Of a DNA stretch of 38,514 bases, positions 2,755 through 22,763 are shown one piece after another. The stretch is taken from the NCBI GenBank assembly GCA_017399175.1, contig JAFQEE010000068.1, positions 1-38,514 of the forward strand, in the 5' to 3' direction. Numbering within the stretch: the first letter of the stretch is position 1; each line of letters opens with the position of its first letter. Under the pieces are notes generated by a model. That model was not told where the DNA came from and searched no databases. It was given only the letters and a program-made list of their open reading frames with translations. The stretch is from Clostridia bacterium. GTDB lineage: Bacteria > Bacillota > Clostridia > Oscillospirales > Acutalibacteraceae. A program made the translations under genes and the position numbers.

Positions 2755-3381
2755 ATGTATAAAACCGTTAAAAGAGTGCTTGATTTTATAATTGCTCTCG
2801 GTGCATTGTTAGTGCTTTGGCCTGTTATGTTAATAGTAGCGATTCTTGTAAAAGTAACATCACCGGGACCTGCAATTTTCGTTCAGCAAAGAGTGGGAAA
2901 AGACGGTAAGGTTTATGATATGTACAAGTTCCGTTCAATGTGTGTCGGTGCCGAACAGCAGGAGGGTGGAGTTTTCTGTACAAAGGGTGACGCAAGAGTA
3001 ACTCCTGTGGGAAAATTTATCCGTGCAACAAGCCTTGACGAATTACCACAGTTAATCAATATCTTAAAAGGTGAAATGTCCTTAATCGGACCTCGTCCCG
3101 TACTTACATATTATCCGAAATATTGGGACGAATACACACAAGAGGAGCTAAAACGATTTGATGTTCTTCCGGGTGTTACAGGTTGGGCGGCGGTTCACGG
3201 CAGAAAAACAAATACGGTTGAAGCAAGATTTGCTTATGACAACTACTATGTTGATAATCTTTCTTTTGCACTTGATGTGAAAATTTTCTTTATGACAATA
3301 AAATCTGTTCTTACTAACGAAGGCAACGAGGACGACGGTTCTGCCGAAGTTGTTACAACAGAAAAAACTGATTCTGAATGA
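2755..3381 (+). CDS. Initiating sugar-1-phosphate transferase (small PglC-like PGT)
   Basis: This bacterial sugar transferase moves a sugar 1-phosphate from a UDP-sugar to undecaprenyl phosphate, the first membrane step of repeat-unit assembly. The 208 residues have one hydrophobic re-entrant helix (about 10-34) with SPGPA after it, the YKFRSM motif (57-62), the catalytic Asp-Glu pair in SLDELPQ (D95, E96) and IGPRP (111-115). The length fits the small monotopic class (PglC, about 200 residues), not the five-helix WcaJ class. It is the first gene of the operon, with a GGGAG site upstream, as expected for the committing enzyme. The first sugar cannot be read from sequence; an N-acetylated sugar made in this locus is possible. 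The acidic tail after residue 190 looks non-conserved. Confidence 0.92.
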   Translation: MYKTVKRVLDFIIALGALLVLWPVMLIVAILVKVTSPGPAIFVQQRVGKDGKVYDMYKFRSMCVGAEQQEGGVFCTKGDARVTPVGKFIRATSLDELPQLINILKGEMSLIGPRPVLTYYPKYWDEYTQEELKRFDVLPGVTGWAAVHGRKTNTVEARFAYDNYYVDNLSFALDVKIFFMTIKSVLTNEGNEDDGSAEVVTTEKTDSE

Positions 3382-3393
3382 GGGTGAAGACCT

Positions 3394-4335
3394 ATGCAAA
3401 AAGTAAATATTAAAAAAACTGAACTTAATGTTTCTGCTCTTTGTATGGGTGGATGTCCTCTTGGCGGATACGGTTGGGGCGATGTTTCAAGACAGGAACT
3501 TATAAATGCAGTTCGTGTTGCTGTTGAAAATGGTATTAACTTCTTTGATACTGCCGATACTTACGGACTCGGTGAAAGTGAAAGAACATTGTCAGAGGCT
3601 CTTGGTACTGATTTAAACAACGCAGTTATAACTACAAAATTCGGTGTAAGAGTCGAAAATGGAAAGACCTTTTATGACAACAGCCGAGATTATATTTTCA
3701 AAGCAGTTGAAGGAAGTCTTAAACGACTTAACAGAGATTACATTGACTTGTATCAGGTGCATTACAGAGATGGTAAAACACCGCTTACTGATGTTGCTGA
3801 AAGTCTTGAAATATTAAAACAGCAAGGTAAAATCAGATATTACGGATTATCAAATATCCATAAGGAAGATATGGAAGAATTGAAGCAGTTTTCAGTTAAT
3901 CCTTTCGTTTCATTTCAGGATGAATACAGCCTTGCTTGTCGTAAAAATGAAAATGATATGTTCTGTTTCCGTGACGAGTTCAATATGACACCATTTACAT
4001 GGGGAAGTTTAGGACAAGGCATATTAAGTGGCAAATACGACAAAAATTGCAAGTTTGAAGCAAATGACCGTCGTTCAAGAGATATTTATGTTAATTTCCA
4101 CGGCGAAAAGCTTCTTAAAAATCTTGAAATTGTTGAAGTCCTTAAAGAAATTGCAGGCGAAACAGGAAAATCAGTTTCATCCGTTGCAATCCGTTGGATT
4201 TTGGATTATTTAAAGGATTCAGTTGTAATTGTCGGTGCAAAAACACCAAAACAAGTTTTACAAAATGCTGAATCACTTACATTTGAATTAACAAACGAAC
4301 AAATCACTCAATTAGAAAATATTTCCAAGGAGTAA
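3394..4335 (+). CDS. Aldo/keto reductase
   Basis: This 313-residue NAD(P)H-dependent oxidoreductase of the aldo/keto reductase superfamily reduces a carbonyl to an alcohol, or the reverse. The catalytic tetrad can be placed at D52 (FFDTADTYG), Y57, K82 (TTKFG) and H123 (YQVHY). The C-terminal cofactor region VVIVGAKTPKQV is present. It sits between the initiating transferase and a split transketolase with short gaps (12 and 6 bases), so it probably acts on a sugar or sugar phosphate made in this operon. Its substrate is not known. Reduction of a ketose or aldose handled by the neighbouring transketolase is a reasonable guess. The ribosome binding site GAGGGTGA is good. Confidence 0.9.
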   Translation: MQKVNIKKTELNVSALCMGGCPLGGYGWGDVSRQELINAVRVAVENGINFFDTADTYGLGESERTLSEALGTDLNNAVITTKFGVRVENGKTFYDNSRDYIFKAVEGSLKRLNRDYIDLYQVHYRDGKTPLTDVAESLEILKQQGKIRYYGLSNIHKEDMEELKQFSVNPFVSFQDEYSLACRKNENDMFCFRDEFNMTPFTWGSLGQGILSGKYDKNCKFEANDRRSRDIYVNFHGEKLLKNLEIVEVLKEIAGETGKSVSSVAIRWILDYLKDSVVIVGAKTPKQVLQNAESLTFELTNEQITQLENISKE

Positions 4336-4341
4336 TAACCT

Positions 4342-5193
4342 ATGAAAAGCGAACAATTAGCGTGGCTCATTAAGCGTCACGGTATTGAAATGACACATCT
4401 TTCTCACGGCAGTCATATCGGCTCAATTCTTTCTGTGGCTGACATTGTTGCTGTTCTTTATAACGATGTGGCAAATATAACACCTCTGAATATAAAGGAC
4501 GAAAACAGAGACAGAATAGTGCTCAGTAAAGGTCACGCAGGTGCAGCAATTTATGCGGCATTGGCTGAAAAAGGTTTTTTCCCTGTGGAGGAATTAAAAA
4601 CTCACTATGCTGATGGAAGCCGTCTTTCAGGTCATGTTTCACATAAGGGTATTCCCGGTGTTGAGATTTCAACAGGCTCATTAGGACATGGTGCTTGTAT
4701 GGCTTGCGGTATTGCTCTTAATGCAAAGCTTGAAAAGATGCCTTATTATACATACGCAATCGTTGGTGACGGTGAATGTGACGAGGGCTCAATCTGGGAA
4801 ATGGCATTGTTTGCAAACCATTTTAAACTCAATCAGTTTGTTGTAATCGTTGACCATAACAAAATGCAGAGCCTTGATTACTGTGAAAATACTTTGGCAC
4901 TTTCTCCGTTTGCAGAAAAATGGAAAGCATTCGGCTGGAATGTGTATGACATTGACGGTCATAATCACGACGAATTGAGAAATGCATTGAATGATGCGAA
5001 AAAATCACAGGACAAGCCAACTGTTATTATTGCAAATACAGTTAAGGGTAACGGTATTTCATTTATGGAAAATGACATTCTATGGCACTATCGTTTCCCA
5101 CACGAGGGTGAAGAATATGATGGTGCATTAAAGGAATTACACGCAGTAATGCCTGAAGGTGTAACTGACCCATATGAGGAGGTTAAAGAATGA
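4342..5193 (+). CDS. Transketolase, N-terminal (ThDP pyrophosphate) subunit
   Basis: This subunit binds the diphosphate of thiamine diphosphate. With the next protein it forms a two-subunit transketolase that transfers a two-carbon ketol unit. In 283 residues it shows SKGHAG (62-67), the ThDP motif starting GDGECDEG (142-149) and ending at DHNK (171-174, N173 as metal ligand), and the GNGISFMEN segment. Whole transketolases are about 660 residues; the split form is common in Clostridia and archaea. Its stop codon overlaps the start of the C-terminal subunit (ATGA, 5190-5193), so the two are translationally coupled. Placement inside a polysaccharide operon, not a pentose phosphate operon, suggests a dedicated role in making an unusual sugar or supplying a ketose phosphate. 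This is inference. Confidence 0.93.
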   Translation: MKSEQLAWLIKRHGIEMTHLSHGSHIGSILSVADIVAVLYNDVANITPLNIKDENRDRIVLSKGHAGAAIYAALAEKGFFPVEELKTHYADGSRLSGHVSHKGIPGVEISTGSLGHGACMACGIALNAKLEKMPYYTYAIVGDGECDEGSIWEMALFANHFKLNQFVVIVDHNKMQSLDYCENTLALSPFAEKWKAFGWNVYDIDGHNHDELRNALNDAKKSQDKPTVIIANTVKGNGISFMENDILWHYRFPHEGEEYDGALKELHAVMPEGVTDPYEEVKE

Positions 5194-6113
5194 GAGATAC
5201 ATTTGTTAAGACCTTACTTGAAATAGCAAAAAAAGATAAAAATGTATATATTGTGACAGGTGACCTTGGATTTGGTGTCTTAAGACCATTTTGGGAGGAA
5301 TTGCCTGACCAGATTATAAATGCAGGTATTGCTGAACAGAATATGACATCAATCGCAGCTGGTCTTGCGTTACAGGGAAAGATTGTTTACACATATTCAA
5401 TCGGTAATTTCCCTACACTCCGTTGTATTGAGCAGATTCGTAACGACTGTGCATACCACGATGCAAATGTTAAGGTTGTATGTGTAGGCGGTGGCTTTGT
5501 ATACGGTTCACTTGGTATGAGTCATCACGCAACAGAAGATATTGCGATTATGCGTGCATTACCAAATGTGACAGTTGTTGCACCCGGTGATTTGGTGGAG
5601 GCTGCTTGTGCTACAAAAGCAATTTATGAAACTCCCGGAACTTGCTATTTAAGACTCGGTAGAGGCGGAGAAAAACAAATCCACGAAAGTATTGAAAACT
5701 TTGAAATCGGCAAGGCAATTAAAATTCAGGATGGCGAGAAAATTGCAATATTCTCAACAGGAGCAATTTTTGACGAAGTAGATGAGGCTTGCAAAACACT
5801 TTCAGAAGAAGGAATTAAACCTATTGTCTATACTTTCCCGACAGTTAAGCCTATTGATAAGGATGTTATCCTTGAATGTGCAAGGGAGTATGACACAATC
5901 ATTACTGTTGAAGAACACAATTTAAGCGGTGGTTTCGGTTCAGCAGTTGCAGAAGTCCTTAGCGAAGAAAGTAATCTTAAAGCAAAACTTGTAAGAGTTG
6001 CACTTGATGACAGATATTCTTGTATCGTGGGCAGTCAGAAATATTTAAGACAACAATATTCAATCGACTCAAAAGCAATTATAGAAAAAGTGAAAGAAAA
6101 CTATACAAAATGA
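5190..6113 (+). CDS. Transketolase, C-terminal (pyrimidine-binding) subunit
   Basis: This is the partner of the preceding protein. It has the catalytic Glu that activates thiamine diphosphate in GIAEQNM (E49) and a C-terminal transketolase domain from about residue 190, with VEEHNLSGGFGSAVAE. At 307 residues it is a normal length for the split C-terminal subunit. DXS-type 1-deoxyxylulose synthase has a similar fold, but that enzyme is a single chain, so transketolase is preferred. A strong GAGGAGG site lies in the end of the upstream gene. Its own stop overlaps the ATG of the next gene by four bases (6110-6113), which ties this enzyme pair to the glycosyltransferase that follows. Confidence 0.92.
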   Translation: MRDTFVKTLLEIAKKDKNVYIVTGDLGFGVLRPFWEELPDQIINAGIAEQNMTSIAAGLALQGKIVYTYSIGNFPTLRCIEQIRNDCAYHDANVKVVCVGGGFVYGSLGMSHHATEDIAIMRALPNVTVVAPGDLVEAACATKAIYETPGTCYLRLGRGGEKQIHESIENFEIGKAIKIQDGEKIAIFSTGAIFDEVDEACKTLSEEGIKPIVYTFPTVKPIDKDVILECAREYDTIITVEEHNLSGGFGSAVAEVLSEESNLKAKLVRVALDDRYSCIVGSQKYLRQQYSIDSKAIIEKVKENYTK

Positions 6114-7177
6114 AAAAGATTTTAATTTTGGCAAATGATGTTACAACCATTGTGCAGTTCCGTACAGAACTTGTAAAAGCATTGGTTGACGCAGGAAACG
6201 AAGTCCTTGTCAGTATTCCAAAAAGTGAACGAAATCACGAAATAACTGACCTTGGTGCAAAGGTGATTGAAACATCATCTTCAAGACACGGAACAAACCC
6301 ATTGGAAGACTTTAAACTGCTTTTAAGTTACATAAGGCTCTTAAAAAAGCATAAACCCGATATTGTGCTTACATATACGGTAAAACCGAATTCTTACGGT
6401 GGTATGGCTTGCTCACTTCTCAATATTCCATATGTTTCAAATGTAACCGGACTTGGTGTGATTGAGGATGAAGGCGTTTTACAGAAGATAATGCTGACAC
6501 TCTATAAAGTCGGGTGCAGAAAGGCAAAATGTGTCTTCTTCCAGAACAAGTCAAACCTTGAATTTTTCAGGCAGAAAAAAATTGTTGGTGAAAATGTGGT
6601 TCTTCTTCCGGGTTCAGGTGTTAATACCGAAAAATTCTCATATGCACCGTATCCACAGAGTGAAAAAACAAATATCGTGTTTGTGGGAAGAATCATCAAA
6701 GATAAAGGTGTTTTTGAACTGGCAGAAGTCGCAAAACAGTATCTTAATAATGAAAATGTTCAATTTACAATTGTCGGTGATGTTGAATACGGTTCACAAA
6801 ATCCGTTTTCAGGACTTTCAAATGTAAATTGTGTTGGTTTCCATAAGGATGTAAGACCATTCCTTAAAGATGCACACGCTGTTATTCTTCCGTCTTATCA
6901 CGAGGGTATGGCAAATGTGCTTTTGGAAGGTGCTGCATCAGGCAGACCGATTATTGCTTCCCTTATTCCAGGATGTCAGGAAACCTTTGACGAGGGTGAA
7001 ACGGGATTCGGTTTTATAGTTAAAGATGCAGACAGTATTAAAAATGCAGTTGATAAATTCCTTTCTTTATCACAGGAGCAGAAATGCGAAATGGGTAAAA
7101 AGGGAAGAAGAAAAATGGAAAATCAGTTTGACAGAAAAATTGTCATTCAGAAATATTTAGATTTAATAAACTCTTAA
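6110..7177 (+). CDS. Glycosyltransferase, GT4 family
   Basis: This retaining glycosyltransferase with a GT-B fold adds a sugar to the lipid-linked oligosaccharide at the inner membrane face. The 355 residues begin with KKILILANDVTT and an N-terminal Rossmann half. They continue with the nucleotide-sugar half at IVFVGRIIKDKG and end with the E-x7-E motif in HEGMANVLLEG. It is closest in style to CapM/EpsD/PglA enzymes. I start at 6110, where ATG overlaps the transketolase stop; the longer frame from 6020 runs inside the transketolase gene. Donor and acceptor cannot be inferred. Coupling to the transketolase subunits may mean it uses their product, but that is a guess. Confidence 0.9.
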   Translation: MKKILILANDVTTIVQFRTELVKALVDAGNEVLVSIPKSERNHEITDLGAKVIETSSSRHGTNPLEDFKLLLSYIRLLKKHKPDIVLTYTVKPNSYGGMACSLLNIPYVSNVTGLGVIEDEGVLQKIMLTLYKVGCRKAKCVFFQNKSNLEFFRQKKIVGENVVLLPGSGVNTEKFSYAPYPQSEKTNIVFVGRIIKDKGVFELAEVAKQYLNNENVQFTIVGDVEYGSQNPFSGLSNVNCVGFHKDVRPFLKDAHAVILPSYHEGMANVLLEGAASGRPIIASLIPGCQETFDEGETGFGFIVKDADSIKNAVDKFLSLSQEQKCEMGKKGRRKMENQFDRKIVIQKYLDLINS

Positions 7178-7200
7178 AAATATAAGAAAGCGTGATTATA

Positions 7201-8526
7201 ATGTTTTCAAATCTCTATGAAAAAATAGTAAATGGTGAAGAAAAAATCTCCCTCGTTGGTCTTGGTTATGTTGGTATGCCAATCGCAGTTGCTTTTTCAA
7301 AGAAAGTAAAGGTTGTTGGTTTTGACCTTAATACCAAGAAAATCGAACTTTATAAAAACGGTATTGACCCGACAAATGAAGTCGGTGACGATGCAATTAA
7401 ATCTTGCACAGTTGAATTTACTGCTGACGAAACAAAACTTCGTGAAGCAAAGTTCCACATTGTTGCAGTACCAACACCTGTAAATGATGACCATACACCC
7501 GATTTAACACCTGTTGAGGGTGCATCAACAATCGTTGGTCGTAACCTTACAAAAGGCTCAATCGTTGTTTATGAATCAACAGTTTATCCGGGAGTTACAG
7601 AGGACATTTGTATTCCGATTCTCGAAAAGGAATCAGGACTTAAATGCGGTGTTGACTTCAAAATCGGTTATTCACCAGAACGCATCAATCCGGGTGACAA
7701 GGTTCATCGTCTTGAGACAATTGTTAAAATAGTTTCGGGTATGGACGAAGAATCTCTTGACCAGATTGCAAAGGTATACGAGCTTGTTGTTGAAGCAGGT
7801 GTTCACAGAGCAGAAAGCATTAAAGTTGCAGAGGCTGCAAAGGTTATTGAAAACAGTCAGCGTGATATCAATATCGCCTTTATGAATGAACTTTCAATTA
7901 TATTTAATAAAATGGGAATTGACACACAGTCAGTCCTTAAAGCAGCAGGAACAAAGTGGAATTTCCTTAAATTCTATCCGGGTCTTGTTGGCGGACATTG
8001 TATAGGTGTTGACCCATACTATCTTACATATAAAGCAGAGCAGTTGGGCTATCACAGCCAGATTATCCTTTCAGGTCGTCGTATCAATGACGATATGGGA
8101 AAATATGTTGCAGAAAGCATCGTTAAAAACCTTATCAAGGCTGATGTTGCAATTAAAAATGCAAAGGTTGCAATCCTTGGTTTCACATTCAAGGAAAACT
8201 GCCCTGATACAAGAAATACAAAAATCATTGATATTTATAACGAACTCAAAGAGTATGGCATTACTGCAACAGTTGCTGACCCATGTGCAGATGCAGACGA
8301 AGCAAAGCACCTTTACGGTATGGAATTTGTGGATATGAATACAATTACAGATTGCGACGCGGTAATCCTTGCAGTTGCTCACGAACAGTTCAAAACTCTT
8401 ACACAAGCTGACTTTGACAAGATGTTCAAAGCAGGGGACAACTCTACAAAAGTTCTTGCTGATATTAAAGGTCTTCTTAACCGTAAGGAATATGAAAAAG
8501 CAGGATATAACTACTGGAGATTATAA
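7201..8526 (+). CDS. UDP-N-acetylhexosamine 6-dehydrogenase (TviB/WbpO-like)
   Basis: This NAD-dependent UDP-sugar dehydrogenase oxidises C6 to a carboxylate in two steps, giving a UDP-HexNAc uronic acid. In 441 residues the NAD site is [10 protein letters not shown] (18-27), and the active-site Cys is C267 in [12 protein letters not shown]. The C-terminal domain carries [13 protein letters not shown]. The wording and length fit the TviB/WbpO group (UDP-GlcNAc/GalNAc) better than UDP-glucose dehydrogenase (Ugd, RKxxL-type). I start at ATG 7201, with AAGAAAG about 10 bases upstream. The frame can begin at GTG 7192, but then the site would be too close. The next gene is a matching 4-epimerase two bases later, as in the Vi antigen locus, so UDP-GalNAcA is the likely product. 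Confidence 0.9.
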
Positions 8527-8528
8527 TT

Positions 8529-9503
8529 ATGGGTTACAAACATTTAAATTTTCCCGAAAATTCAGTATTCTTAGTAACAGGAGCAGCAGGTTTTATCGGC
8601 TCCAACCTTTGCGAAGCAATACTCAATATGGGATACAAGGTAAAAGCACTTGACGACCTTTCAACAGGTAAACAAAAGAACATTGATATGTTTATCGACA
8701 ATCCTAACTATACATTTATAAAAGGCGATATCAAAGACCTTGATACTTGTATGAAAGCCTGTGAAGGTGTCGACTTCGTGCTCAATCAGGCTGCTTGGGG
8801 TAGTGTTCCTCGTTCAATCGAAATGCCTTTGTTTTATTGCAAAAACAATATCGAAGGTACTCTTAATATGATGGAAGCAGCACGACAGAACGGTGTCAAG
8901 AAATTCGTTTATGCGTCAAGCTCATCAGTTTATGGTGACGAACCTAATCTTCCTAAATATGAAGGCAGAGAGGGTAATCTTCTTTCACCGTATGCCCTGA
9001 CAAAGCGTTGCGATGAGGAATGGGGTAAGCTTTACACAAAACTTTACGGACTTGACACATACGGAATGAGATATTTCAATGTTTTCGGTCGTCGTCAGGA
9101 CCCTGACGGTGCATATGCAGCGGTTATCCCAAAATTCTTAAAGCAACTTCTTAATGGTGAAACACCAACAATCAACGGTGACGGTAAACAAAGCCGTGAC
9201 TTTACATATATCGACAATGTTATCGAGGCAAACCTTAAAGCTTGTCTTGCTCCGAGTGAGGCAGCGGGTGAAGCATATAATATCGCATACGGTGGCCGTG
9301 AATACTTGATTGACATTTACTATGGTCTTACAAAGGCTTTAGGTGTAGATATTGAGCCTAATTTTGGCCCTGACCGTAAAGGTGACATTAAGCATAGTAA
9401 TGCAGATATTTCAAAAGCAAAGAAATTATTGGGCTATGACCCTGATTACAGTTTCCAAGACGGTATAAAACTCGCAATTGAGTGGTATAAGGAGAATTTG
9501 TAA
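8529..9503 (+). CDS. UDP-sugar 4-epimerase (WbpP/TviC-like)
   Basis: This short-chain dehydrogenase interconverts gluco- and galacto-configured UDP-sugars at C4. The 324 residues show the Rossmann motif GAAGFIG (18-24), the Ser cluster ASSSSVYG (129-136) and the catalytic pair Y155 and K159 in PYALTK. The WGSVPRS and GRRQDPDGAYAAVIP segments are typical of WbpP/TviC enzymes that prefer N-acetylated substrates. It starts two bases after the dehydrogenase stop, with GGAGAT inside the end of that gene, and overlaps the ATP-grasp gene by one base. Together with the dehydrogenase it should provide UDP-GalNAcA, by either order of oxidation and epimerisation. Substrate preference is inferred from family and context. 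Confidence 0.9.
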   Translation: MGYKHLNFPENSVFLVTGAAGFIGSNLCEAILNMGYKVKALDDLSTGKQKNIDMFIDNPNYTFIKGDIKDLDTCMKACEGVDFVLNQAAWGSVPRSIEMPLFYCKNNIEGTLNMMEAARQNGVKKFVYASSSSVYGDEPNLPKYEGREGNLLSPYALTKRCDEEWGKLYTKLYGLDTYGMRYFNVFGRRQDPDGAYAAVIPKFLKQLLNGETPTINGDGKQSRDFTYIDNVIEANLKACLAPSEAAGEAYNIAYGGREYLIDIYYGLTKALGVDIEPNFGPDRKGDIKHSNADISKAKKLLGYDPDYSFQDGIKLAIEWYKENL

Positions 9504-10396
9504 TGATAGATTTACGAAAAGTTTTCGGCAGAGATTTTCGTGAGAAAATGATGTATGCTTTGTCCATTTTGCCTGACAAACTTTATCTTCAGATATTCTA
9601 TTTTTCAACAACAGGAAAATTTATAAATTTTAAAAATCCACGAGGCTTTAACGAAAAACTACAATGGCTTAAAGTCAATGACAGAAGACCTGAATATACA
9701 CAGCTTGTGGATAAACTTGCTGTTCGTGACCATATTGAAAAAGTTTTAGGTGAAGAGTATTTGTTCCCACTTCTTGGTAAATGGGAATCTTTTGATGAAA
9801 TTGATTTTCAATCTTTACCTGAAAAATTTGTGTTGAAATGTAATCATGATTCAGGCAGTACAAAAGTGATAAAGAACAAATCTTCCTTAACAAAAGCAGA
9901 TTTTGAAGAAATGAAGGAGTTTTATACAGAAAGACTTAAACGCGATTTCTTTTATGCGGGTCGTGAATATCCGTATAAAGGTATAAAACCATACATAATT
10001 GCTGAACAGCTTATGGTTGATGAAACAGCTCCACAAAAGGCAATTGATGACTATAAGTTTTTCTGTTTTAATGGTGAACCTAAGATAATGTTTGTTGCTA
10101 CGGACAGAGAATGTGATTGCAGAACAGACTTTTTTGATATGGATTTTAATCACCTTGAATTTTATAATGTTCATCCCAATTCAGATAAAACCATTACAAA
10201 GCCCGAAAAGTTTGATGAAATGAAAGAAATTGCCGCTAAGCTTTCAAAGGGTATGCGACAGGTCAGAATAGACTTATATGAGCTTAATGGTAAAATCTAT
10301 TTTGGAGAGTTTACATTTTTCCACGGTGGCGGATTTAGACTTTATCAACCTTCATGTTGGGAAGCTGAACTTGGAAATTGGATAGATTTGTCTTAA
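9503..10396 (+). CDS. TupA-like ATP-grasp protein
   Basis: This 297-residue protein resembles the TupA-like ATP-grasp family, named after a teichuronopeptide biosynthesis protein of alkaliphilic Bacillus. Visible features are the family-type opening with GFNEKLQWLK, the D-x-V-R-like segment KLAVRDHIEKVLGEEYL, the ATP-grasp strand FVLKCNHDSGS, YIIAEQLM, DYKFFCFNG, and the C-terminal metal-binding region VRIDLYELNGKIYFGEFTFF. ATP-grasp ligases join a carboxylate to an amine through an acyl phosphate. It overlaps the uronic acid epimerase gene by one base, so it may amidate the uronic acid carboxylate with an amino acid. That substrate is inference. The ribosome site AAGGAGAA is good. Confidence 0.85.
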   Translation: MIDLRKVFGRDFREKMMYALSILPDKLYLQIFYFSTTGKFINFKNPRGFNEKLQWLKVNDRRPEYTQLVDKLAVRDHIEKVLGEEYLFPLLGKWESFDEIDFQSLPEKFVLKCNHDSGSTKVIKNKSSLTKADFEEMKEFYTERLKRDFFYAGREYPYKGIKPYIIAEQLMVDETAPQKAIDDYKFFCFNGEPKIMFVATDRECDCRTDFFDMDFNHLEFYNVHPNSDKTITKPEKFDEMKEIAAKLSKGMRQVRIDLYELNGKIYFGEFTFFHGGGFRLYQPSCWEAELGNWIDLS

Positions 10397-11403: not shown

Positions 11404-12687
11404 ATGAAGATTTTAGTTTTATCTTCAACACCATGGTCGAATGATAACAGCTTTGGCAATACATTCTCCAATATTTTCGAGGGAATTGATGATATCGAGG
11501 TTGCAAATATTTCCTGTAGACCGGGTAAACCCACAAGTTATCTTGTAAAAAGATATTTTCAGATAACAGAAAAAGCACTTATAAAAAACATTTTTAATAA
11601 GTCTTTTCCTACAGGTACTGAAATTAAAACAGATGATAAAGAAATCGACAGTAGCTTTTCTGAAAACATTAAAGCACGAGAATTTGGCAGAAAAAACCGT
11701 TGGCAGATTCTTTTCTGGGTGCGTGACATCATATGGAAAATAGGCTGTTGGAAATCACAGGAACTCATTGATTTTATTGATGACTATAAGCCTGATGTAC
11801 TTTTTATGCCTATCTATTTTTCAAGTTATCTCAATGATATATTACTTTTTATAAAAAAACATACAGACGTTCCAATGATAGGCTACATATCCGATGATAA
11901 CTACACACTAAAGCAATTTTCATTGTCACCATTTTATTGGTTAGAGAGATTGTATAAAAGAAGAAAAGTAAAGAAATCTGTAAACAAATGCGATTTGCTT
12001 TATGTAATTTCCGATGTTCAAAAGGAAGAATACGAAAAAATTTTTAATCCACCTTGTAAAATCCTTACAAAGTGTGCAGATTTTTCGGATAACAGAAAAC
12101 CTGATTTTAAAGAACCTGATGAGGTTCTCAAAATTGTCTATGCAGGTAATATAAGTAGCGGACGATACGAAATACTCAGTGAACTTGCTAAATCAATTGA
12201 AGGAATAAATAGCAACGGTAAAAAATTCCAAATGGATATATATACCTTGACTCCATTGAAGGAAAAGCAGAAAAATGTTCTCTCAACAGATTCAGTTCAT
12301 CTTCATCCGCCGGTCAGCTATGATGAAATTCGTGAAATTCAAAAAAATTCAGATATTCTTCTCCATTGTGAAGGCTTTAGTCTGAAAGAAAAATTGGCAG
12401 TCCATCAGTCTTTTTCAACAAAAATTGTGGACTACCTTGAAACCAACCGTTGCATACTTGCAATTGGTGATGATTATTGTGCTTCAATTAAATACTTTAT
12501 TGACAATAATTGCGGTGCAGTAGCAACAAGCAAAAAAGAAATTAAGCCATGCCTTATGAAATTGTGTAGCAATCACGATTTGTTAAAGCAATATGCTGAC
12601 AATGCGTGGGAAAGCGGAAAGAAAAAACATAGTCATATCAATATAAAACAAATGGTAAAGGACGATTTGGTTTTTCTTACAAAATAA
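11404..12687 (+). CDS. Putative GT-B (GT4-like) glycosyltransferase
   Basis: This 427-residue protein begins KILVLSSTPWSNDNS, like GT-B enzymes, and its second half has LKIVYAGNISSGRYEIL, where donor-binding strands are expected. A segment DILLHCEGFSLKEKLAV follows in the position of the E-x7-E region, but the classical pair is not clear. The family is therefore less certain than for its neighbours. The region is rich in Lys and Asp and reads as more AT-rich than the sugar-nucleotide genes. It starts two bases after the previous stop, with AGAGGT upstream. A role in adding one sugar of the repeat is likely from context. A transferase of something other than a sugar cannot be excluded. Confidence 0.7.
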   Translation: MKILVLSSTPWSNDNSFGNTFSNIFEGIDDIEVANISCRPGKPTSYLVKRYFQITEKALIKNIFNKSFPTGTEIKTDDKEIDSSFSENIKAREFGRKNRWQILFWVRDIIWKIGCWKSQELIDFIDDYKPDVLFMPIYFSSYLNDILLFIKKHTDVPMIGYISDDNYTLKQFSLSPFYWLERLYKRRKVKKSVNKCDLLYVISDVQKEEYEKIFNPPCKILTKCADFSDNRKPDFKEPDEVLKIVYAGNISSGRYEILSELAKSIEGINSNGKKFQMDIYTLTPLKEKQKNVLSTDSVHLHPPVSYDEIREIQKNSDILLHCEGFSLKEKLAVHQSFSTKIVDYLETNRCILAIGDDYCASIKYFIDNNCGAVATSKKEIKPCLMKLCSNHDLLKQYADNAWESGKKKHSHINIKQMVKDDLVFLTK

Positions 12688-13784: not shown

Positions 13785-14978
13785 ATGAAAGTTTTACAAA
13801 TCAATGCAGTTTATGGATATAAAAGCACCGGCATTATTGTAAAGGATATTGAATCTCTTTTGAATAATAACGGTCACACCGCTTATGTTGCATATCAGAC
13901 TGCAGTCAATCCACTTGATAATTCATATAAAATCGGAAATGTACCTGATTATAAATTCCATGCGGTTTATTCAAGAGTTTTTGGTAAGCAAGCATATGCA
14001 AGTAAACTTGCAACAAAGGGACTAATTAGGTACATAATGAGCATTTCACCGGATATTGTCCATTTTCACAATCTCCACAGCAATTATATCAATCTTAATA
14101 TGCTGTGTGATTATCTTGCAAAAAGCAAAATTCCTGTTGTGATTACTATGCACGATTGCTGGTGTTTTACAGGCAAATGCACTCATTATGCAGCCGTTAA
14201 ATGTGATAAATGGCAATCAACCTGCGGAAATTGTCCGCAGAATAAAAACGAACAGGCAAGCTTGTTTTTTGATTGCACTAACAAGGTGCTTAAGGACAAA
14301 ACAGAGCATCTTAACAAATTACACAAACTTACTCTTGTGGGATGTAGTGAGTGGATATCAAATGAAGCAAAAAAATCTTTGATTAAGAACGCCGATATTC
14401 ATGTAGTATATAACGGTGTTGACACATCGATTTTTACACCTCACAAAAATAATTTCAAAGAAAAATACAACCTGAAAAAAGATTTTACAATTTTAGGCTT
14501 TGCTAATAAATGGTGTCTTGATATTAACAAAGATGCTGCTGAAAAAATCATACAACACAACAAAGATGCCGATATTGTTATTGTTGGATGCACAAAAGAA
14601 CAGGAAAAACTGTTTGAAATATATGAAAATCTCACTTGTATAGGATATGTTAATGACAGACAAGAACTTGCGGATATATATGCATTAAGTGATGTTTTTA
14701 TAAACCTTACTCACGCTGATACACTTCCTACAGTTAATATGGAGAGCATCTGTTGCGGTACTCCCGTTATAACATATAACTGTTGTGGTAGTCCTGAACT
14801 TGTTGACAGCGACAGCGGTTATGTTGTAAAAGAAAATGATGTTGATTCCTTGTTGTTAAGGATAAAACAGATAAAAGAAAAACCTTTACTTTTTGATGTA
14901 AAGGAAAAACAAAAGAGATTTGACAAGAATACTTGTTACAATAAGTATCTTGATATATATAATTCTATTCATAAATAA
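13785..14978 (+). CDS. Glycosyltransferase, GT4 family with Cys-rich motif
   Basis: This GT-B glycosyltransferase has 397 residues. The N-terminal domain contains KVLQINAVYGYKSTG and the HFHNLH segment. It then shows the MHDCWCFTGKC motif and a second Cys group CGNCPQ, typical of a WcaC/WfgS-like subgroup whose Cys residues may bind metal or form a structural cluster. The C-terminal domain has LPTVNMESICCGTPVI, with one Glu of the E-x7-E motif in place (E-S-I-C-C-G). It lies 11 bases after the polymerase gene with only a weak TAGGG site, so translation may depend on coupling. Donor and acceptor are unknown. Confidence 0.88.
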   Translation: MKVLQINAVYGYKSTGIIVKDIESLLNNNGHTAYVAYQTAVNPLDNSYKIGNVPDYKFHAVYSRVFGKQAYASKLATKGLIRYIMSISPDIVHFHNLHSNYINLNMLCDYLAKSKIPVVITMHDCWCFTGKCTHYAAVKCDKWQSTCGNCPQNKNEQASLFFDCTNKVLKDKTEHLNKLHKLTLVGCSEWISNEAKKSLIKNADIHVVYNGVDTSIFTPHKNNFKEKYNLKKDFTILGFANKWCLDINKDAAEKIIQHNKDADIVIVGCTKEQEKLFEIYENLTCIGYVNDRQELADIYALSDVFINLTHADTLPTVNMESICCGTPVITYNCCGSPELVDSDSGYVVKENDVDSLLLRIKQIKEKPLLFDVKEKQKRFDKNTCYNKYLDIYNSIHK

Positions 14979-15006
14979 TAAAAATTCATATTATGTGAGG
15001 ACAATT

Positions 15007-15753
15007 ATGAAAGTATTAATTACGGGTGCAGGTGGATTTATAGGTAAAAACCTGACTGCAAAATTAAATGAAATTTTTGACGATGTTGTTATCTATTATT
15101 ATGATATAGAAACACCGGAAGAGGATTTGGACAAGTTTGCAAAGGAGTGTGACTTTGTATATAATTTTGCAGCTGTTCACAGACCTAAAAGTGAAGATGA
15201 ATTTGACAAAGTAAATCATAAATTTTTCTGTGGATTATTAGATTTGCTTAAAAAATACAACAATAAATGTCCTGTATTATATACATCTTCAATTCAGGCT
15301 GATAATGGCACTAAATACGGTGAAAGCAAAATCGCAGCAGAAAAAGCTTTGATTGAATATGGTAAGGAAACAGGTAATCGTATTGTAATATATCGCCTTA
15401 CAAATACTTTTGGCAGATGGGCTACTCCAAATCATCATTCTGTTGTTGCAACATTTTGTTACAATCTGGTTAATAATATGGAGCTTACAATCAGCAATCC
15501 TGACATTGTAATGAATTTTTATTATATAGACGATGTTATTGAATCCTTCATAACTCAATTAAAGGGTGAGGTTCAGCCTTGTAGTGATGGCATTTTCCGT
15601 CTTGAAGGAAATAAAGTTTACAGTATTTCGTTGGGCGACCTTGCTTACAAATTAACATACATAAGCAAATGCGTAAAAGAGGATGTCACTCCGGAATTTA
15701 AAGAGAATATTGACGAGAAACTTTATATTACATATTTATCTTATTGCAAATAG
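15007..15753 (+). CDS. SDR-only CapF paralogue (NDP-sugar reductase/epimerase)
   Basis: This 248-residue short-chain dehydrogenase matches the N-terminal domain of the CapF protein encoded at 23832-24977, with GAGGFIG (7-13), catalytic Y104 and K108 in YGESK, and SSIQAD. It ends at TYLSYCK, where full CapF has TYLSYLPK just before its cupin domain, so it is cut exactly at the domain border. I see no cupin remnant after the stop. The start at 15007 is fixed by GAGGA upstream; a longer frame to 14920 overlaps the previous gene. In CapF the SDR domain reduces a 4-keto sugar and the cupin epimerises C3. This copy could be a pure 4-reductase for a second 6-deoxy-L-HexNAc, or a decaying duplicate. 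Intact catalytic residues favour an active enzyme. Confidence 0.85.
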   Translation: MKVLITGAGGFIGKNLTAKLNEIFDDVVIYYYDIETPEEDLDKFAKECDFVYNFAAVHRPKSEDEFDKVNHKFFCGLLDLLKKYNNKCPVLYTSSIQADNGTKYGESKIAAEKALIEYGKETGNRIVIYRLTNTFGRWATPNHHSVVATFCYNLVNNMELTISNPDIVMNFYYIDDVIESFITQLKGEVQPCSDGIFRLEGNKVYSISLGDLAYKLTYISKCVKEDVTPEFKENIDEKLYITYLSYCK

Positions 15754-19075: not shown

Positions 19076-20527
19076 ATGAATAAGGTAAAAGCATTTTTAA
19101 CAAAACTGAATAGTATGTCACCGGCTGCAAAGGCATCTTTTTGGTTTGTTGTATCTAATGTTGTGCTTAAGGGTATTTCATTTATAACAACACCTATTTT
19201 CACCCGTATGCTCGATGTGGCTGACTACGGTGTTTCAAGTGTTTTTGTCACTTGGGAAGGTGTTATCAGCATCTTTGCAACCCTTTCACTCGGTGGTGGT
19301 GTTTATAATGTTGCAATGACTAAATTCGAAAAAGATGTTGATAAATATACATCTTCTATGATTGGTCTTGTGGCGTTGACATCAGTGTTTACATATCTTG
19401 TATGTATTACAATCAACGCAGTTTTCCCGCAATTATTCGGACTCAGTATCGGTTATCTCGTATTTATGTGGGTTCAGACATTTACAAACGCCGCTACAAC
19501 CTTCTGGTTAATGCGTAAAAGATATACATACGATTATAAAAAGGTAATAGCATATACCTTCACCAATGCAATACTCAGTCCCGTTGTTGCTATAATTGCA
19601 GTAAGACTTGTTGAGGATAATAAGGCTTATGCAAAGGTTATCGGCTCGGGAATGTGGGGCATTATCGTCGGTACTACAATTATGATTTTGCTTATACATA
19701 AAGGCAAAAAGCTTTATCATAAAGAATATTGGAAATATGCTCTTAAGTTCAATGTTCCTTTGCTTCCATATTATTTATCTCAGGTAATACTCAATTCATC
19801 GGACAAACTGATGCTCGACTACTTTATAGGTTCTGCATCAGCAGGTCTTTATAGTATTGCTCACAGTATTACAGGAGTTGTTAGTATAATAACACAGTCA
19901 ATAAACAGTTCCTTAATTCCATATACTCTGCAGTCTATAAAAAATGGTACAGTAAAAAAACTGAATAATGTGGTTATTGGCTGCAGTGCTCTCGTTGCTG
20001 TTATATGTGAGATGCTTGTGCTTTTTGCAAGGGAAGGAATTCTCATTTTTGCAACAGAGGAATATATGGATGCAGTATGGTTTGTAGCACCTTTGTCATT
20101 CAGTGTTCAGATAGCTTTTGTGACAGGGCTTGTTGGTAACATTATGTTTTACCACGAAAAAACAAAGGAAATGAGCTCAATCACAATGATAACGGCGGCT
20201 ATAAATGTTGTTCTTAATTTTACAGGCATAAAGCTGTTTGGTTTTGTGGCGGTTGGTTATGCAACTCTTATCACAAACTTTATTAAATTCTTCCTTACAT
20301 ATTTCGCAGTAAAAAAATATGAAAAAAATCTTAATGAAATAATTAATCTTAAATACTTGTTGATTATTTTTGCAGGTTTTGGAATTCTGATGATTTACGG
20401 ATTAGTTTTTTGGAACAATCTGATTATGAAAATAGCACTTTTGGTTGTAATTATGATTTTGGTAGTGGCGTACAGAAAGAAGATTATGAATCTTTTTGCA
20501 ACTATGAAAAAAACAGGTGGTGAGTAA
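19076..20527 (+). CDS. Wzx-type oligosaccharide flippase
   Basis: This polytopic membrane protein of 483 residues should flip the undecaprenyl-linked repeat unit across the membrane. About 14 hydrophobic helices are spread over the whole length. The N-terminus has ASFWFVVSNVVLKGISF followed by TTPIFTRMLDVADYGV, the typical polysaccharide biosynthesis/MOP flippase opening. SSDKLMLDYFIGSASAGLYSI in the middle is also characteristic. It pairs with the EpsG-like polymerase at 12709. The start is one base after the previous stop, which suggests coupling. Confidence 0.92.
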   Translation: MNKVKAFLTKLNSMSPAAKASFWFVVSNVVLKGISFITTPIFTRMLDVADYGVSSVFVTWEGVISIFATLSLGGGVYNVAMTKFEKDVDKYTSSMIGLVALTSVFTYLVCITINAVFPQLFGLSIGYLVFMWVQTFTNAATTFWLMRKRYTYDYKKVIAYTFTNAILSPVVAIIAVRLVEDNKAYAKVIGSGMWGIIVGTTIMILLIHKGKKLYHKEYWKYALKFNVPLLPYYLSQVILNSSDKLMLDYFIGSASAGLYSIAHSITGVVSIITQSINSSLIPYTLQSIKNGTVKKLNNVVIGCSALVAVICEMLVLFAREGILIFATEEYMDAVWFVAPLSFSVQIAFVTGLVGNIMFYHEKTKEMSSITMITAAINVVLNFTGIKLFGFVAVGYATLITNFIKFFLTYFAVKKYEKNLNEIINLKYLLIIFAGFGILMIYGLVFWNNLIMKIALLVVIMILVVAYRKKIMNLFATMKKTGGE

Positions 20528-20531
20528 GCAA

Positions 20532-22763
20532 ATGAACAATAAAAAAATTGGTATTATAACCGTTCACAGAAATGTTAATTATGGTGCTAATTTACAGGCT
20601 TTTGCAAGTTGTAAATTCATAAATAACGCTGGATATAATGCTGAAATTATTGATTATTATCCAAAGGAAATTGATAAGGATAATTATTTGTTTAGTTGGC
20701 TTAAGCTTTCCTATAACGGAGGCAAGTCAAAATCCTTGCCTCATAATATAAAGCTTATGACGGCACTCACATTATCTGCACCTGAAAAAAATAAAAGGCT
20801 TAAAGGCTTTTATTCCTTTAGAAAAAAACATTGCAGATTGTCACCTAAATATACAAGTTTTGAAGACATAGCTAACGGTGAATATACCGATGTTGTTTGT
20901 GGAAGTGACCAAATATGGAATCCGAGTATTACATGCGGAATGAAGCCATTATATTTTGGCGATATTTTAGGTGTTAATAACAAAATTTCTTATGCTGCAA
21001 GTCTTGGCAGAGAAAAATATAATGAAAAAGATGAACAAAAAGCTGCTGAACTTATTAAGAAATTGGATTATGTATCAGTGCGTGAAGAAAAATCTATTGA
21101 GTACGTAAAAAATATATCAGGAAAAGATGTTGTTGGTGTTTGTGACCCTGTTTTTCTGTTAGAAAAAGAAGAATATGAAAAAATAGCGAAACCAATTAAA
21201 TTGAAACAGCCATATCTGTTATTGTATAGCGTAGTTAACAATCCTGAAATGTTGTCTGTAGCAGAGGACTACGCAGATAGAAATGGCTTGATATTAGTAG
21301 AAATATGTCAGAACAAAAATTACCGTAAAAAACATATTCAATTTTCAGCGTTATCTCCTGAAGAATTTTTAGGTGCGATAAATGATGCACAAGCTGTTAT
21401 CACAAACTCATTTCATGGTACTGCTTTCTCAATAGTATTCAACAAGAATTTTTGTGTGTTTGATAATAAGGCACGAGGAAGCAGAATAACAAATATTTTA
21501 AACAAAGCAGGTCTTGAAAACCGAATTGTTGAAGAAAAAATAGATGAGCTTTCACCGATTGATTATGAAAAAGTAAATGCAAATCTTAATGATTACATTG
21601 AGCCATCAAAACAATTTTTACTTTCTGCATTAAGTGCTGGAAAGAGAGCAATAACAGACGATTGTGTCGGTTGCGGTGCGTGTAAGGCGGTATGCAAGTT
21701 TGATGCTGTCAGTATCACAAAAAATTATGGGGGATTTGTAAAATGTTACATTGATACTAATAAATGCATCAACTGTGGTATGTGCACAAAGGCTTGTCCT
21801 GTAATAAATACTCCGCAAAAAATAAACCCTAAAAAAGTTTTCGCATTCAAAGCGGAAGACCATATAAGAAAAAATGCCACATCAGGCGGTGTTGCATCTG
21901 CACTTGCTGAAAAAGTTATAAATAACGGCGGTGCTGTTTACGGTGCCTCACTTGATGATAATTTCAACCTTAAACACATACGAATAAATCGTGTTGAAGA
22001 TATTGCTTTGATTCAAGGTACAAAATATATCCAAAGTGATATGACAGGCATTTTTGATAATCTTAAAAATGACCTCCTAAGTGGTATTCCTGTTCTTTTC
22101 ACAGGCACGCCTTGTCAGGTAGCATCAGTTAAAAACTTTGCATCATCAAAAAAACTAGATGTACAAAATCTTTATTTGTGTGATATAATCTGTCATGGTG
22201 TTCCGTCACCAAAGGTGTTCAAGGATTATATTGAATGGCTTGGTAGTACTGAAAAAAGTAAGATAACAAAATATTATTTCAGAAATAAAAGTTTTTCTTG
22301 GCGTGGAGATTCAAGTTCTGCGCAAACTGATAACGCTGAAGTTAAGCGAAACAAAAATGTTTCAGCATTTATGAATCTTTATTACGGAAACAATATCACT
22401 TGTGATGCTTGTTTTAACTGTAAATTTACATCACAGGACAGAGTAGGTGACTTGACTATATCCGATTTTTGGGGTATAGAAAAGGATAATCCGGAATTTG
22501 AAGATAAATTAGGTGTATCAATGGTTCTTGTGAATTCACAAAAGGGCAAGGAACTGTTTGAAGAACTCCAAGGTAAATATGTTGAAGCAAATATTGAAAA
22601 CGCAAAACAGCCACAGTTAAAAAATCCTGTGAATAAACCTGATGGTTATGATGCTTTCTGGAGGATTTACAAGGAAAATGGTATTGATTATACAGTAAAA
22701 AAATATGCAATACCAAAAACGACCTTAAAAACAATTGTTTATAATCTTATAAAAGGCAAATAG
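20532..22763 (+). CDS. Pyruvyl transferase-FrhB fusion protein
   Basis: This 743-residue protein joins two modules usually found as neighbouring genes. Residues 1 to about 330 form a polysaccharide pyruvyl transferase domain, with IGIITVHRNVNYGANLQAFA at the start, CGSDQIWNP (123-131) and TNSFHGTAFS (291-300). Two 4Fe-4S motifs follow, CVGCGACKAVC (378-388) and CINCGMCTKAC (412-422). The rest is an F420 hydrogenase/dehydrogenase beta-subunit (FrhB) domain with ATSGGVASALAE, TGTPCQVAS, CDIICHGVPSP and VGDLTISDFWG. Pyruvyl transferases put a ketal on sugars from phosphoenolpyruvate. FrhB proteins are flavin and iron-sulfur oxidoreductases. The combined reaction is unknown. I start at ATG 20532 because GGTGAG lies upstream; a GTG at 20517 overlaps the flippase end. 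Confidence 0.88.
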   Translation: MNNKKIGIITVHRNVNYGANLQAFASCKFINNAGYNAEIIDYYPKEIDKDNYLFSWLKLSYNGGKSKSLPHNIKLMTALTLSAPEKNKRLKGFYSFRKKHCRLSPKYTSFEDIANGEYTDVVCGSDQIWNPSITCGMKPLYFGDILGVNNKISYAASLGREKYNEKDEQKAAELIKKLDYVSVREEKSIEYVKNISGKDVVGVCDPVFLLEKEEYEKIAKPIKLKQPYLLLYSVVNNPEMLSVAEDYADRNGLILVEICQNKNYRKKHIQFSALSPEEFLGAINDAQAVITNSFHGTAFSIVFNKNFCVFDNKARGSRITNILNKAGLENRIVEEKIDELSPIDYEKVNANLNDYIEPSKQFLLSALSAGKRAITDDCVGCGACKAVCKFDAVSITKNYGGFVKCYIDTNKCINCGMCTKACPVINTPQKINPKKVFAFKAEDHIRKNATSGGVASALAEKVINNGGAVYGASLDDNFNLKHIRINRVEDIALIQGTKYIQSDMTGIFDNLKNDLLSGIPVLFTGTPCQVASVKNFASSKKLDVQNLYLCDIICHGVPSPKVFKDYIEWLGSTEKSKITKYYFRNKSFSWRGDSSSAQTDNAEVKRNKNVSAFMNLYYGNNITCDACFNCKFTSQDRVGDLTISDFWGIEKDNPEFEDKLGVSMVLVNSQKGKELFEELQGKYVEANIENAKQPQLKNPVNKPDGYDAFWRIYKENGIDYTVKKYAIPKTTLKTIVYNLIKGK

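What the first reader, a model, noticed from the sequence alone, without database searches (positions are those of the whole stretch)
3394..7177. Aldo/keto reductase plus split transketolase embedded in a polysaccharide operon
Seen: an AKR with its full catalytic tetrad, then both subunits of a transketolase, with ATGA overlaps linking tktN to tktC and tktC to a GT4 gene. They sit directly behind the initiating transferase. Known: transketolase moves a ketol unit between sugars; AKRs reduce carbonyls. Inference: the set makes or modifies an unusual component, for example a ketose, a branched sugar or an alditol, which the coupled GT4 may transfer. I know no established pathway with this gene set.
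Basis: partly seen in the sequence, partly recalled or inferred. Interest (0 to 1): 0.72.

Follow-up and report, generated by a model that had tools for sequence, protein, structure and literature searches.

The report
Polysaccharide transketolase–reductase sugar module
Next to the gene that starts a surface polysaccharide, this bacterium carries a two-piece transketolase and a reductase that recur together in distantly related bacteria and may build an unusual, branched first sugar for the chain.

Summary
In detail: an AKR with its tetrad, both halves of a split transketolase and a GT4, joined by two ATGA overlaps, behind a phosphoglycosyl transferase (PGT). The genome also has two other split pairs and a DXS. 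The set belongs to a distinct, patchy family. Of 80 related loci (TktC 60-88% identical), 68 have enough upstream DNA: 65 have a PGT and 65 exactly one reductase, AKR (48) or an unrelated SDR (17), never both. Reductase type changes 11 times on the TktC tree but once on the PGT tree, so PGT and reductase are a matched pair; the GT4 is not. Three relatives of this Tkt pair sit in CDP-4-keto-sugar loci, two with a reductase fused to TktN. Best reading (inferred): the transketolase adds a two-carbon ketol unit to a keto sugar nucleotide, plausibly the CapD product, the AKR reduces the new side-chain ketone, and the PGT loads this branched sugar first. This parallels yersiniose and paulomycose synthesis, with a transketolase doing the branching; such split transketolases are proposed in print for Streptomyces antibiotics but untested. 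Acceptor and product are not shown, and a catabolic relative shares the altered acceptor site.

The parts
2755..3381 (+). Small phosphoglycosyl transferase (Bac_transf, PglC-like), loads the first sugar-1-phosphate on undecaprenyl phosphate
   Evidence: Pfam Bac_transf 221.9 bits; nearest solved structures PglC 8g1n 152 bits, then WbaP 119; a PGT is present in 65 of 68 related loci
3394..4335 (+). Aldo/keto reductase, proposed to reduce the ketone of the new side chain
   Evidence: Pfam 219.1 bits; tetrad D52 Y57 K82 H123 in 53 of 53 cassette AKRs; replaced by an unrelated SDR in 17 of 68 loci
4342..5193 (+). Transketolase N half (ThDP diphosphate-binding subunit)
   Evidence: Pfam Transketolase_N; nearest structure 6yak, split transketolase of Carboxydothermus; seven mapped ThDP/donor-side residues 80 of 80
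5190..6113 (+). Transketolase C half (pyrimidine-binding plus C-terminal domain)
   Evidence: Pfam; nearest structure 6yaj; acceptor-side residues altered family-wide, human H416->G 81/81 and D424->L 80/81
5190..5193 (+). ATGA overlap TktN/TktC
   Evidence: sequence
6110..6113 (+). ATGA overlap TktC/GT4
   Evidence: sequence
6110..7177 (+). GT4 glycosyltransferase, probably adds the second sugar; overlaps TktC, not part of the conserved core
   Evidence: Pfam; window-type GT4 at this place in 38 of 79 loci, 4 at 50% or more

Best explanation
PGT, AKR, TktN and TktC form one module that makes and loads the first sugar of the polymer. Proposed order: (1) a sugar nucleotide with a keto group, most plausibly UDP-2-acetamido-2,6-dideoxy-hexos-4-ulose from a CapD/PglF-type dehydratase encoded elsewhere in the genome; (2) TktN/TktC takes a two-carbon ketol (hydroxyacetyl) unit from a ketose phosphate or hydroxypyruvate and adds it to that ketone, giving a tertiary alcohol with a hydroxyacetyl branch; (3) the AKR (in other loci an SDR) reduces the branch ketone to a 1,2-dihydroxyethyl group; (4) the PGT transfers this C-branched sugar-1-phosphate to undecaprenyl phosphate; (5) GT4 and the later GTs extend it. 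Shown here: the genes, their conservation, the PGT/reductase pairing, the altered acceptor site, three related CDP-keto-sugar loci and two reductase-TktN fusions. Inferred: every chemical step, the acceptor, the donor and the product.
For: (a) Conserved core: of 68 loci with enough upstream DNA, TktN 68, PGT 65, exactly one of two unrelated reductases 65; record titles name Bacillota, Bacteroidota, Actinomycetota, Spirochaetes, Omnitrophota and others. (b) PGT and reductase are matched: among 70 of 81 sequences with a PGT and one reductase, reductase type changes 11 times on the TktC tree, 13 on TktN, 1 on PGT; 500 label shuffles on the TktC and PGT trees gave a mean of 18 and a minimum of 13, TktN was not shuffled. 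(c) Related pairs lie in CDP-4-keto-sugar loci: 1 of the 80 (L073, TktC 62% identical, with RfbF, RfbG, RfbH) and 2 of the 5 plasmid loci that I opened: Methylovirgula L126 (43%) with RfbF-RfbG-oxidoreductase-RfbH-TktN-TktC, the yersiniose gene set (recalled) with a Tkt pair in place of YerE, and Paenibacillus L125 (45%) with RfbF and RfbG. In L073 and L125 an extended SDR is fused to TktN, homologous to the free oxidoreductase of L126. (d) Active site: mapped ThDP and donor-side residues kept 80/80 or 81/81; human H416->G 81/81, D424->L 80/81; L073, L125 and L126 also lack both. (e) CapD lies directly upstream of PGT or SDR-PGT in 8 of the 80 loci (L017, L032, L034, L042, L054, L058, L080, L083) and in congener G036 (L133), with no aminotransferase between. 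[quoted passage not shown] YerE adds two carbons to a CDP-4-keto sugar; split transketolases are proposed for miharamycin.
Against: The altered acceptor site is not specific: L134, a catabolic-looking SDR-TktN-TktC set and the nearest non-polysaccharide relative seen (49.5%), has the same Gly and Leu, and Caballeronia L129 has Asn and Leu. No acceptor-forming gene is conserved inside the locus; CapD is adjacent in few loci. Genome-wide CapD is only modestly enriched: 75/80 cassette genomes against 62/76 cassette-less relatives with a PGT, Fisher p 0.027, and one cassette genome (L049) shows none. PGT and reductase are neighbours, so joint inheritance could be plain physical linkage. The window's own PGT belongs to a different lineage from the other AKR-type PGTs. 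L073 lacks the PGT and AKR of the module, and L125 and L126 are only 43-45% identical, so function may differ. In L149 the aldolase/2-hydroxyacid-dehydrogenase module that occupies this slot in congeners co-occurs with an aminotransferase, so the swap does not prove a common 4-keto acceptor. No polymer structure from any of these species is known to me.
Confidence: 0.47

Rival explanations
1. The reductase alone makes the PGT's sugar: it reduces the CapD 4-keto product to UDP-D-QuiNAc or UDP-D-FucNAc, the AKR and SDR giving different C4 epimers. The transketolase makes something else for a later residue.
For: Explains the PGT/reductase pairing and the indifference of the Tkt trees, and CapD next to PGT and reductase in 8 loci and G036.
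Against: The Tkt pair keeps exactly one reductase in 65 of 68 loci; in L073 and L125 a reductase is fused to TktN; the slot-mate module in congeners is again a carboligase plus a reductase.
Confidence: 0.17
2. TktNC and AKR make a free or phosphorylated ketose or alditol (for example xylulose, erythritol or threitol phosphate) that a GT or another enzyme attaches.
For: Transketolases normally make ketose phosphates; AKRs and classical SDRs reduce aldoses and ketoses; catabolic-looking Tkt sets with a dehydrogenase exist in L134 and Caballeronia L129, and L134 shares the altered acceptor residues.
Against: No cytidylyltransferase, kinase or other activating gene was seen to recur with the core; the acceptor-site His and Asp kept in the genome's C40 pair are gone; it does not explain the PGT pairing.
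Confidence: 0.16
3. Precursor supply: a spare transketolase raises the flux of sugar phosphates for the operon, and the AKR detoxifies aldehydes.
For: Transketolase is a central-metabolism enzyme; extra copies in operons can act this way (general knowledge).
Against: Two other split pairs are present; family-wide change of acceptor residues; strict one-reductase rule and matched PGT.
Confidence: 0.06
4. Same logic, different carbon: the ketol unit is added to an aldehyde or ketone at another position (C3, C6, or a 4-keto-pentose from UDP-GlcA), giving a chain-extended or differently branched sugar.
For: UGD or TviC homologues lie in 16 of 80 loci as held (my count); CapD adjacency is limited; everninomicin eurekanate is proposed to come from a 4-keto-pentose (PMC10338323 passages).
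Against: UGD/TviC were not seen in the other 64 loci (flanks up to 10 kb); the dehydratases seen beside relatives (RfbG, CapD, PseB) give 4-keto-6-deoxy sugars (recalled).
Confidence: 0.14

Closest known systems
Yersiniose pathway (RfbF, RfbG, RfbH, YerE, YerF)
   Same: A ThDP enzyme adds a two-carbon branch to a keto sugar nucleotide and a reductase then reduces the branch ketone; Methylovirgula L126 has the RfbF/RfbG/RfbH part with a Tkt pair
   Different: YerE is a decarboxylase-superfamily enzyme using pyruvate (PMC12247030 passages; YerF recalled); here a split transketolase, an AKR or classical SDR, and a dedicated PGT
Paulomycose branch (Pau11/Pau12 and Pau7)
   Same: ThDP enzyme pair plus an AKR ketoreductase; an acyltransferase then acts on the new hydroxyl (PMC4753412 passages). 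Many cassettes also carry an acyltransferase
   Different: Pau11/12 are homologues of AviB1/AviB2, proposed to use pyruvate as donor; antibiotic, not polysaccharide; Pau7 sequence not compared
Split-gene transketolases proposed for miharamycin and amipurimycin
   Different: Streptomyces secondary metabolism, untested in vitro; here surface-polysaccharide loci with PGT and reductase; sequences not compared
Housekeeping-type split transketolase (Carboxydothermus 6yak/6yaj; this genome's C40 pair)
   Same: Same two-chain architecture, ThDP and donor residues
   Different: TktC 37% identical to the genome's own C40 subunit; acceptor-side His and Asp replaced
Actinoplanes missouriensis wps-2 EPS cluster (PMC13390465)
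   Same: Split transketolase genes inside a Wzx/Wzy cluster, noted by its authors (passage)
   Different: Beside a methyltransferase and two DegT aminotransferases; the passage assigns no function; sequence not compared

Membership tests
Transketolase (ThDP superfamily) | ThDP-binding motif and catalytic glutamate | tested here: met
   GDG Asp and Asn 80/80, catalytic Glu 81/81
Transketolase (ThDP superfamily) | His that marks ketol (not pyruvate) donors, replaced by Phe in DXS (PMC7661550 passages) | tested here: met
   H98 of TktN, 80/80, mapped by alignment; no activity test
Classical pentose-phosphate transketolase | Acceptor residues (human H416, D424; roles recalled) for phosphorylated 2-hydroxyaldoses | tested here: not met
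   G 81/81 and L 80/81. R318 and R474 are kept (81/81, 80/81). S345->G (79/81) is not diagnostic: the genome's C40 pair has Ala there. Catabolic-looking L134 has the same Gly and Leu
YerE-type branching enzyme | Decarboxylase (acetolactate synthase-like) family | tested here: not met
   Pfam and NCBIfam give transketolase models best
C-branched sugar nucleotide pathway | Keto sugar nucleotide source encoded with the ThDP enzyme | tested here: inconclusive
   Yes in L073, L125, L126 and CapD adjacent in 8 of 80 loci plus G036; in this genome an off-locus CapD (G000:C2) and FnlA at 22775
C-branched sugar nucleotide pathway | Branched product detected | not testable with these tools
   needs enzyme assay or NMR
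AKR superfamily | D-Y-K-H tetrad | tested here: met
   53/53
Pau7 group (AKR5I) | Closer to Pau7 than to other AKRs | not tested
   no Pau7 sequence at hand
Small PGT (PglC-like) | Bac_transf domain, short form | tested here: met
   208 aa, 221.9 bits; PglC best structure match

The most novel reading that the evidence does not exclude
A mobile pathway starts surface polysaccharides on a C-branched 6-deoxy-HexNAc, made by a split transketolase that accepts a ketone (a UDP-4-keto sugar). AKR-type and SDR-type modules give opposite side-chain epimers, each read by its own PGT clade. This would be the first transketolase shown to branch a sugar nucleotide, and a new class of initiating sugar.
Probability: 0.27. 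Interest if true: 0.82.

Novelty: new variant of a known kind. Interest (0 to 1): 0.62.

Why it matters
ThDP enzymes that join a carbon unit to a ketone are sought-after catalysts. A 2025 review (PMC12247030, section 2.3 read) lists split transketolases with ketone acceptors only from Streptomyces, none characterised. Here is a family in at least 80 species genomes, with paired reductases and PGTs, that makes the question testable in vitro. If right, it also names a new kind of reducing-end sugar in bacterial surface polysaccharides.

Tried and rejected
Considered and dropped: the AKR as a detoxifying bystander (it is kept, or replaced by one SDR, in 65 of 68 loci); the GT4 as the coupled partner; CapD as an obligate neighbour (near in few loci). 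For that reason the confidence in the best explanation was lowered from 0.50 to 0.47, the ketose/alditol rival raised from 0.13 to 0.16 and the novel case lowered from 0.28 to 0.27. A first CapD comparison (79/80 against 61/75) counted contig-edge fragments and left out G075; it was redone by hand with E<=1e-70 and open frames of at least 450 aa, giving 75/80 against 62/76, p 0.027. Phylum-wide prevalence: 1 of 398 genomes at E<=1e-95, the window itself, so no independent held-out set was built. Paper searches for transketolase in capsule, O-antigen or exopolysaccharide pathways showed no assigned function in the listings; several listings are capped (15 of 1,013 papers, 20 of 5,976). Two papers that mention transketolase subunits near sugar genes were opened for passages: PMC13390465 and PMC5013579. 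A search for apulose gave nothing. Phage-record matches were 29-38% identical and not followed. Structure prediction was not run: single chains only, and the site lies between two chains.
Full report
What is there. The window is contig C68 of an unnamed 2.11 Mb genome, 72 contigs, 96.9% complete (completeness); relatives' record titles point to Clostridia/Oscillospiraceae. A Wzx/Wzy-type operon begins at 2755: PGT, AKR, TktN, TktC, GT4, then UGD/TviB-like, TviC-like, a TupA-like ATP-grasp, more GTs, EpsG-like and Wzx-like genes, a pyruvyl transferase fusion and FnlA/FnlB/FnlC-like genes.

Not the housekeeping enzyme. Four Transket_pyr genes are in the genome: the window's, a split pair on C40, a split pair on C57 beside an aminotransferase, and a 631-aa ORF on C39 that reads as DXS by eye. 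The window TktC is 37% and 34% identical to the C40 and C57 subunits. Among 98 whole genomes (this one included) all have some match, but a strong window-type TktC appears in only five congeners: G005 and G013 (fragments), G023, G024, G036. In a draw of 398 phylum genomes only the window's own passes E<=1e-95. The family is therefore rare and patchy.

A conserved module. A scan of 84,980 species genomes found 267 relatives and kept the best 80 (L008-L087, mostly MAGs, TktC 60-88% identical). Titles name Bacillota, Bacteroidota, Spirochaetes, Actinomycetota (Raineyella), Omnitrophota, Victivallales and Chthonomonadales. With tblastn, 68 of the 80 have at least 3.3 kb upstream of TktC: TktN in 68, PGT in 65, AKR only in 48, SDR only in 17, both in none, neither in 3 (L031, L073, L087); PGT not seen in 3 (L014, L067, L073), although L067 has one beyond the 5.5 kb limit. 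Orders are PGT-AKR-TktN-TktC and SDR-PGT-TktN-TktC, often with an acyltransferase or a Branch-type GT before TktN (Pfam on one example each). The 80 were chosen by similarity to TktC, not by neighbourhood.

The reductase goes with the PGT. Of 81 sequences (window included), 70 have a PGT and exactly one reductase (49 AKR, 21 SDR); 11 were dropped for lack of one or the other. Reductase type needs 11 changes on the TktC tree, 13 on TktN and 1 on PGT; 500 label shuffles on the TktC and PGT trees gave a mean of 18 and a minimum of 13 (FastTree; TktN not shuffled). With weak nodes collapsed the TktC count stays at 7 or more. Two unrelated reductases thus alternate beside one transketolase, each with its own PGT clade. 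The simplest reading is that the PGT recognises the reductase's product. Physical linkage of the two neighbours is the alternative. The window's PGT and those of L008, L009, L010, L012, L013 form a third lineage.

Relatives beside CDP-keto-sugar genes. L073 (soil Bacteroidetes MAG, TktC 62%; the only one of the 80 of this type that I found) has an extended SDR fused to TktN, then TktC; downstream on the other strand lie RfbH (720 bits, cut-off 423), CDP-glucose 4,6-dehydratase (434.7, cut-off 278) and an RfbF-like gene. It has no PGT, AKR or SDR of the module. I opened 5 plasmid loci (of 23 records matched). Methylovirgula HY1 (L126, 43%) has RfbF, RfbG, oxidoreductase, RfbH (712 bits), TktN, TktC in a row. 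Paenibacillus cellulosilyticus (L125, 45%) has RfbF, RfbG, a methyltransferase, an SDR-TktN fusion and TktC. The L126 oxidoreductase is 38% and 34% identical to the fused domains of L125 and L073. RfbF/G/H make CDP-3,6-dideoxy-4-keto-glucose (recalled), the acceptor of YerE (PMC12247030, passages). The other three do not fit: Solidesulfovibrio (L127) lies by PseB/PseC, Azospirillum (L128) by radical SAM genes, Caballeronia (L129) in a sugar-uptake locus; and genome locus L134 (49.5%) lies behind a LacI-type regulator with an SDR, apparently catabolic.

Active site. The seven TktN residues mapped (80/80), the catalytic Glu and the His at human Q428 (81/81) are invariant. The residue at human H416 is Gly in 81/81 and that at D424 is Leu in 80/81, whereas the genome's C40 pair keeps His and Asp. 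That H416 and D424 contact the substrate phosphate and the acceptor hydroxyl is recalled. All of L125, L126, L127, L128 and L073 lack both; but so do catabolic-looking L134 (Gly, Leu) and L129 (Asn, Leu), and the C57 pair lacks the Asp. So the change fits an acceptor other than a phosphorylated hydroxyaldehyde, with a normal ketol donor, but it neither identifies the acceptor nor marks polysaccharide enzymes.

The slot in congeners. I fetched 20 PGT loci from 20 congeners without a strong TktC match. Three (L138, L139, L149) share the window's left-flank genes by eye. In 11 (L136-L146) the PGT, 52-63% identical to the window's, is followed by an aldolase-like and a 2-hydroxyacid-dehydrogenase-like gene (HpcH/HpaI and D-2-hydroxyacid dehydrogenase by Pfam in L138, the others by clustering), in 10 of 11 then a GT4-like gene by eye; their PGTs are sister to the window clade. 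Six (L148, L151-L155) have a DegT-type aminotransferase before the PGT (Pfam on L153, the rest by clustering or eye); two (L147, L150) have no module; L149 has aldolase, DegT and PglD together, with aldolase-DegT and GT4-dehydrogenase fusions. One-query tblastn found no aldolase or PglD in the 80 Tkt loci, and a DegT gene near two (L008, L076). So the slot tends to hold a carboligase plus a reductase, but L149 warns against assuming one common acceptor.

The keto sugar. CapD-like genes lie directly upstream in eight of the 80 loci, on both AKR and SDR types, and in G036. Genome-wide, a strong PF02719 gene (E<=1e-70) with a frame of at least 450 aa is in 75 of 80 cassette genomes; four have a weaker or contig-edge piece, L049's has none. 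Cassette-less relatives with a PGT: 62 of 76 (32 of 33 in the genus, 30 of 43 outside). Fisher p is 0.027 overall and 0.0008 against those outside the genus, without correction for kinship or completeness. This is weak support. In this genome CapD is an orphan on C2.

Precedents. [quoted passage not shown] Pau6 acylates the new hydroxyl (PMC4753412, passages). Split transketolases were proposed to transfer hydroxyacetyl to a keto sugar for miharamycin and amipurimycin; 13 further Streptomyces split pairs were listed and none tested (PMC12247030, section 2.3; the cited Krug et al. 2024 was not read). A 2026 paper notes a split transketolase in an Actinoplanes EPS cluster; the passage gives no function (PMC13390465). 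In the listings of my searches (open-licence library, some listings capped) I saw no paper that assigns a function to such genes in polysaccharide loci.

Conclusion. A dedicated PGT-reductase-transketolase module is shown. That it makes a C-branched initiating sugar is the best inference, about even odds; that the acceptor is the CapD product is likelier than any other single choice but unproved.

Noticed in passing
L136-L146 (cassette-less congeners), e.g. L138:3508-5283: An HpcH/HpaI aldolase plus D-2-hydroxyacid dehydrogenase pair takes the AKR-TktN-TktC slot behind a related PGT: a second carboligase-reductase module of unknown product.
   Followed up: partly
L149:2974-5031 and 6313-8406: Fusions of that aldolase with a DegT aminotransferase and of a GT4 with the D-2-hydroxyacid dehydrogenase.
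   Followed up: partly
window 20517-22763: One 748-aa ORF joins a polysaccharide pyruvyl transferase to an iron-sulfur FrhB/FdhB-like domain.
   Followed up: no
window 14920-15753 and 23832-24977: Two WbcJ/FnlB-like proteins; the first shows no C-terminal Polysacc_synt_C domain.
   Followed up: no
window 9503-10396: TupA-like ATP-grasp behind TviB/TviC-like genes, perhaps an amide on a uronic acid; UGD-TviC-TupA order also in L009, L020, L022.
   Followed up: no
window 11404-12687: 427-aa ORF with no Pfam or NCBIfam match, beside the EpsG-like gene.
   Followed up: no
G000:C57 (L006:2126-6997): A second split transketolase pair beside a class III-type aminotransferase and two SCP2-like genes (names by eye).
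   Followed up: no
L134:5986-9727: A LacI-type regulator, SDR, TktN, TktC set (TktC 49.5% identical), apparently catabolic and with the same acceptor-site residues as the window's family.
   Followed up: partly
L013, L036, L048, L050, L067, L071, L079: A Branch-type (Core-2/I) glycosyltransferase gene inserted in or just behind the module (Pfam run on L013's only).
   Followed up: no
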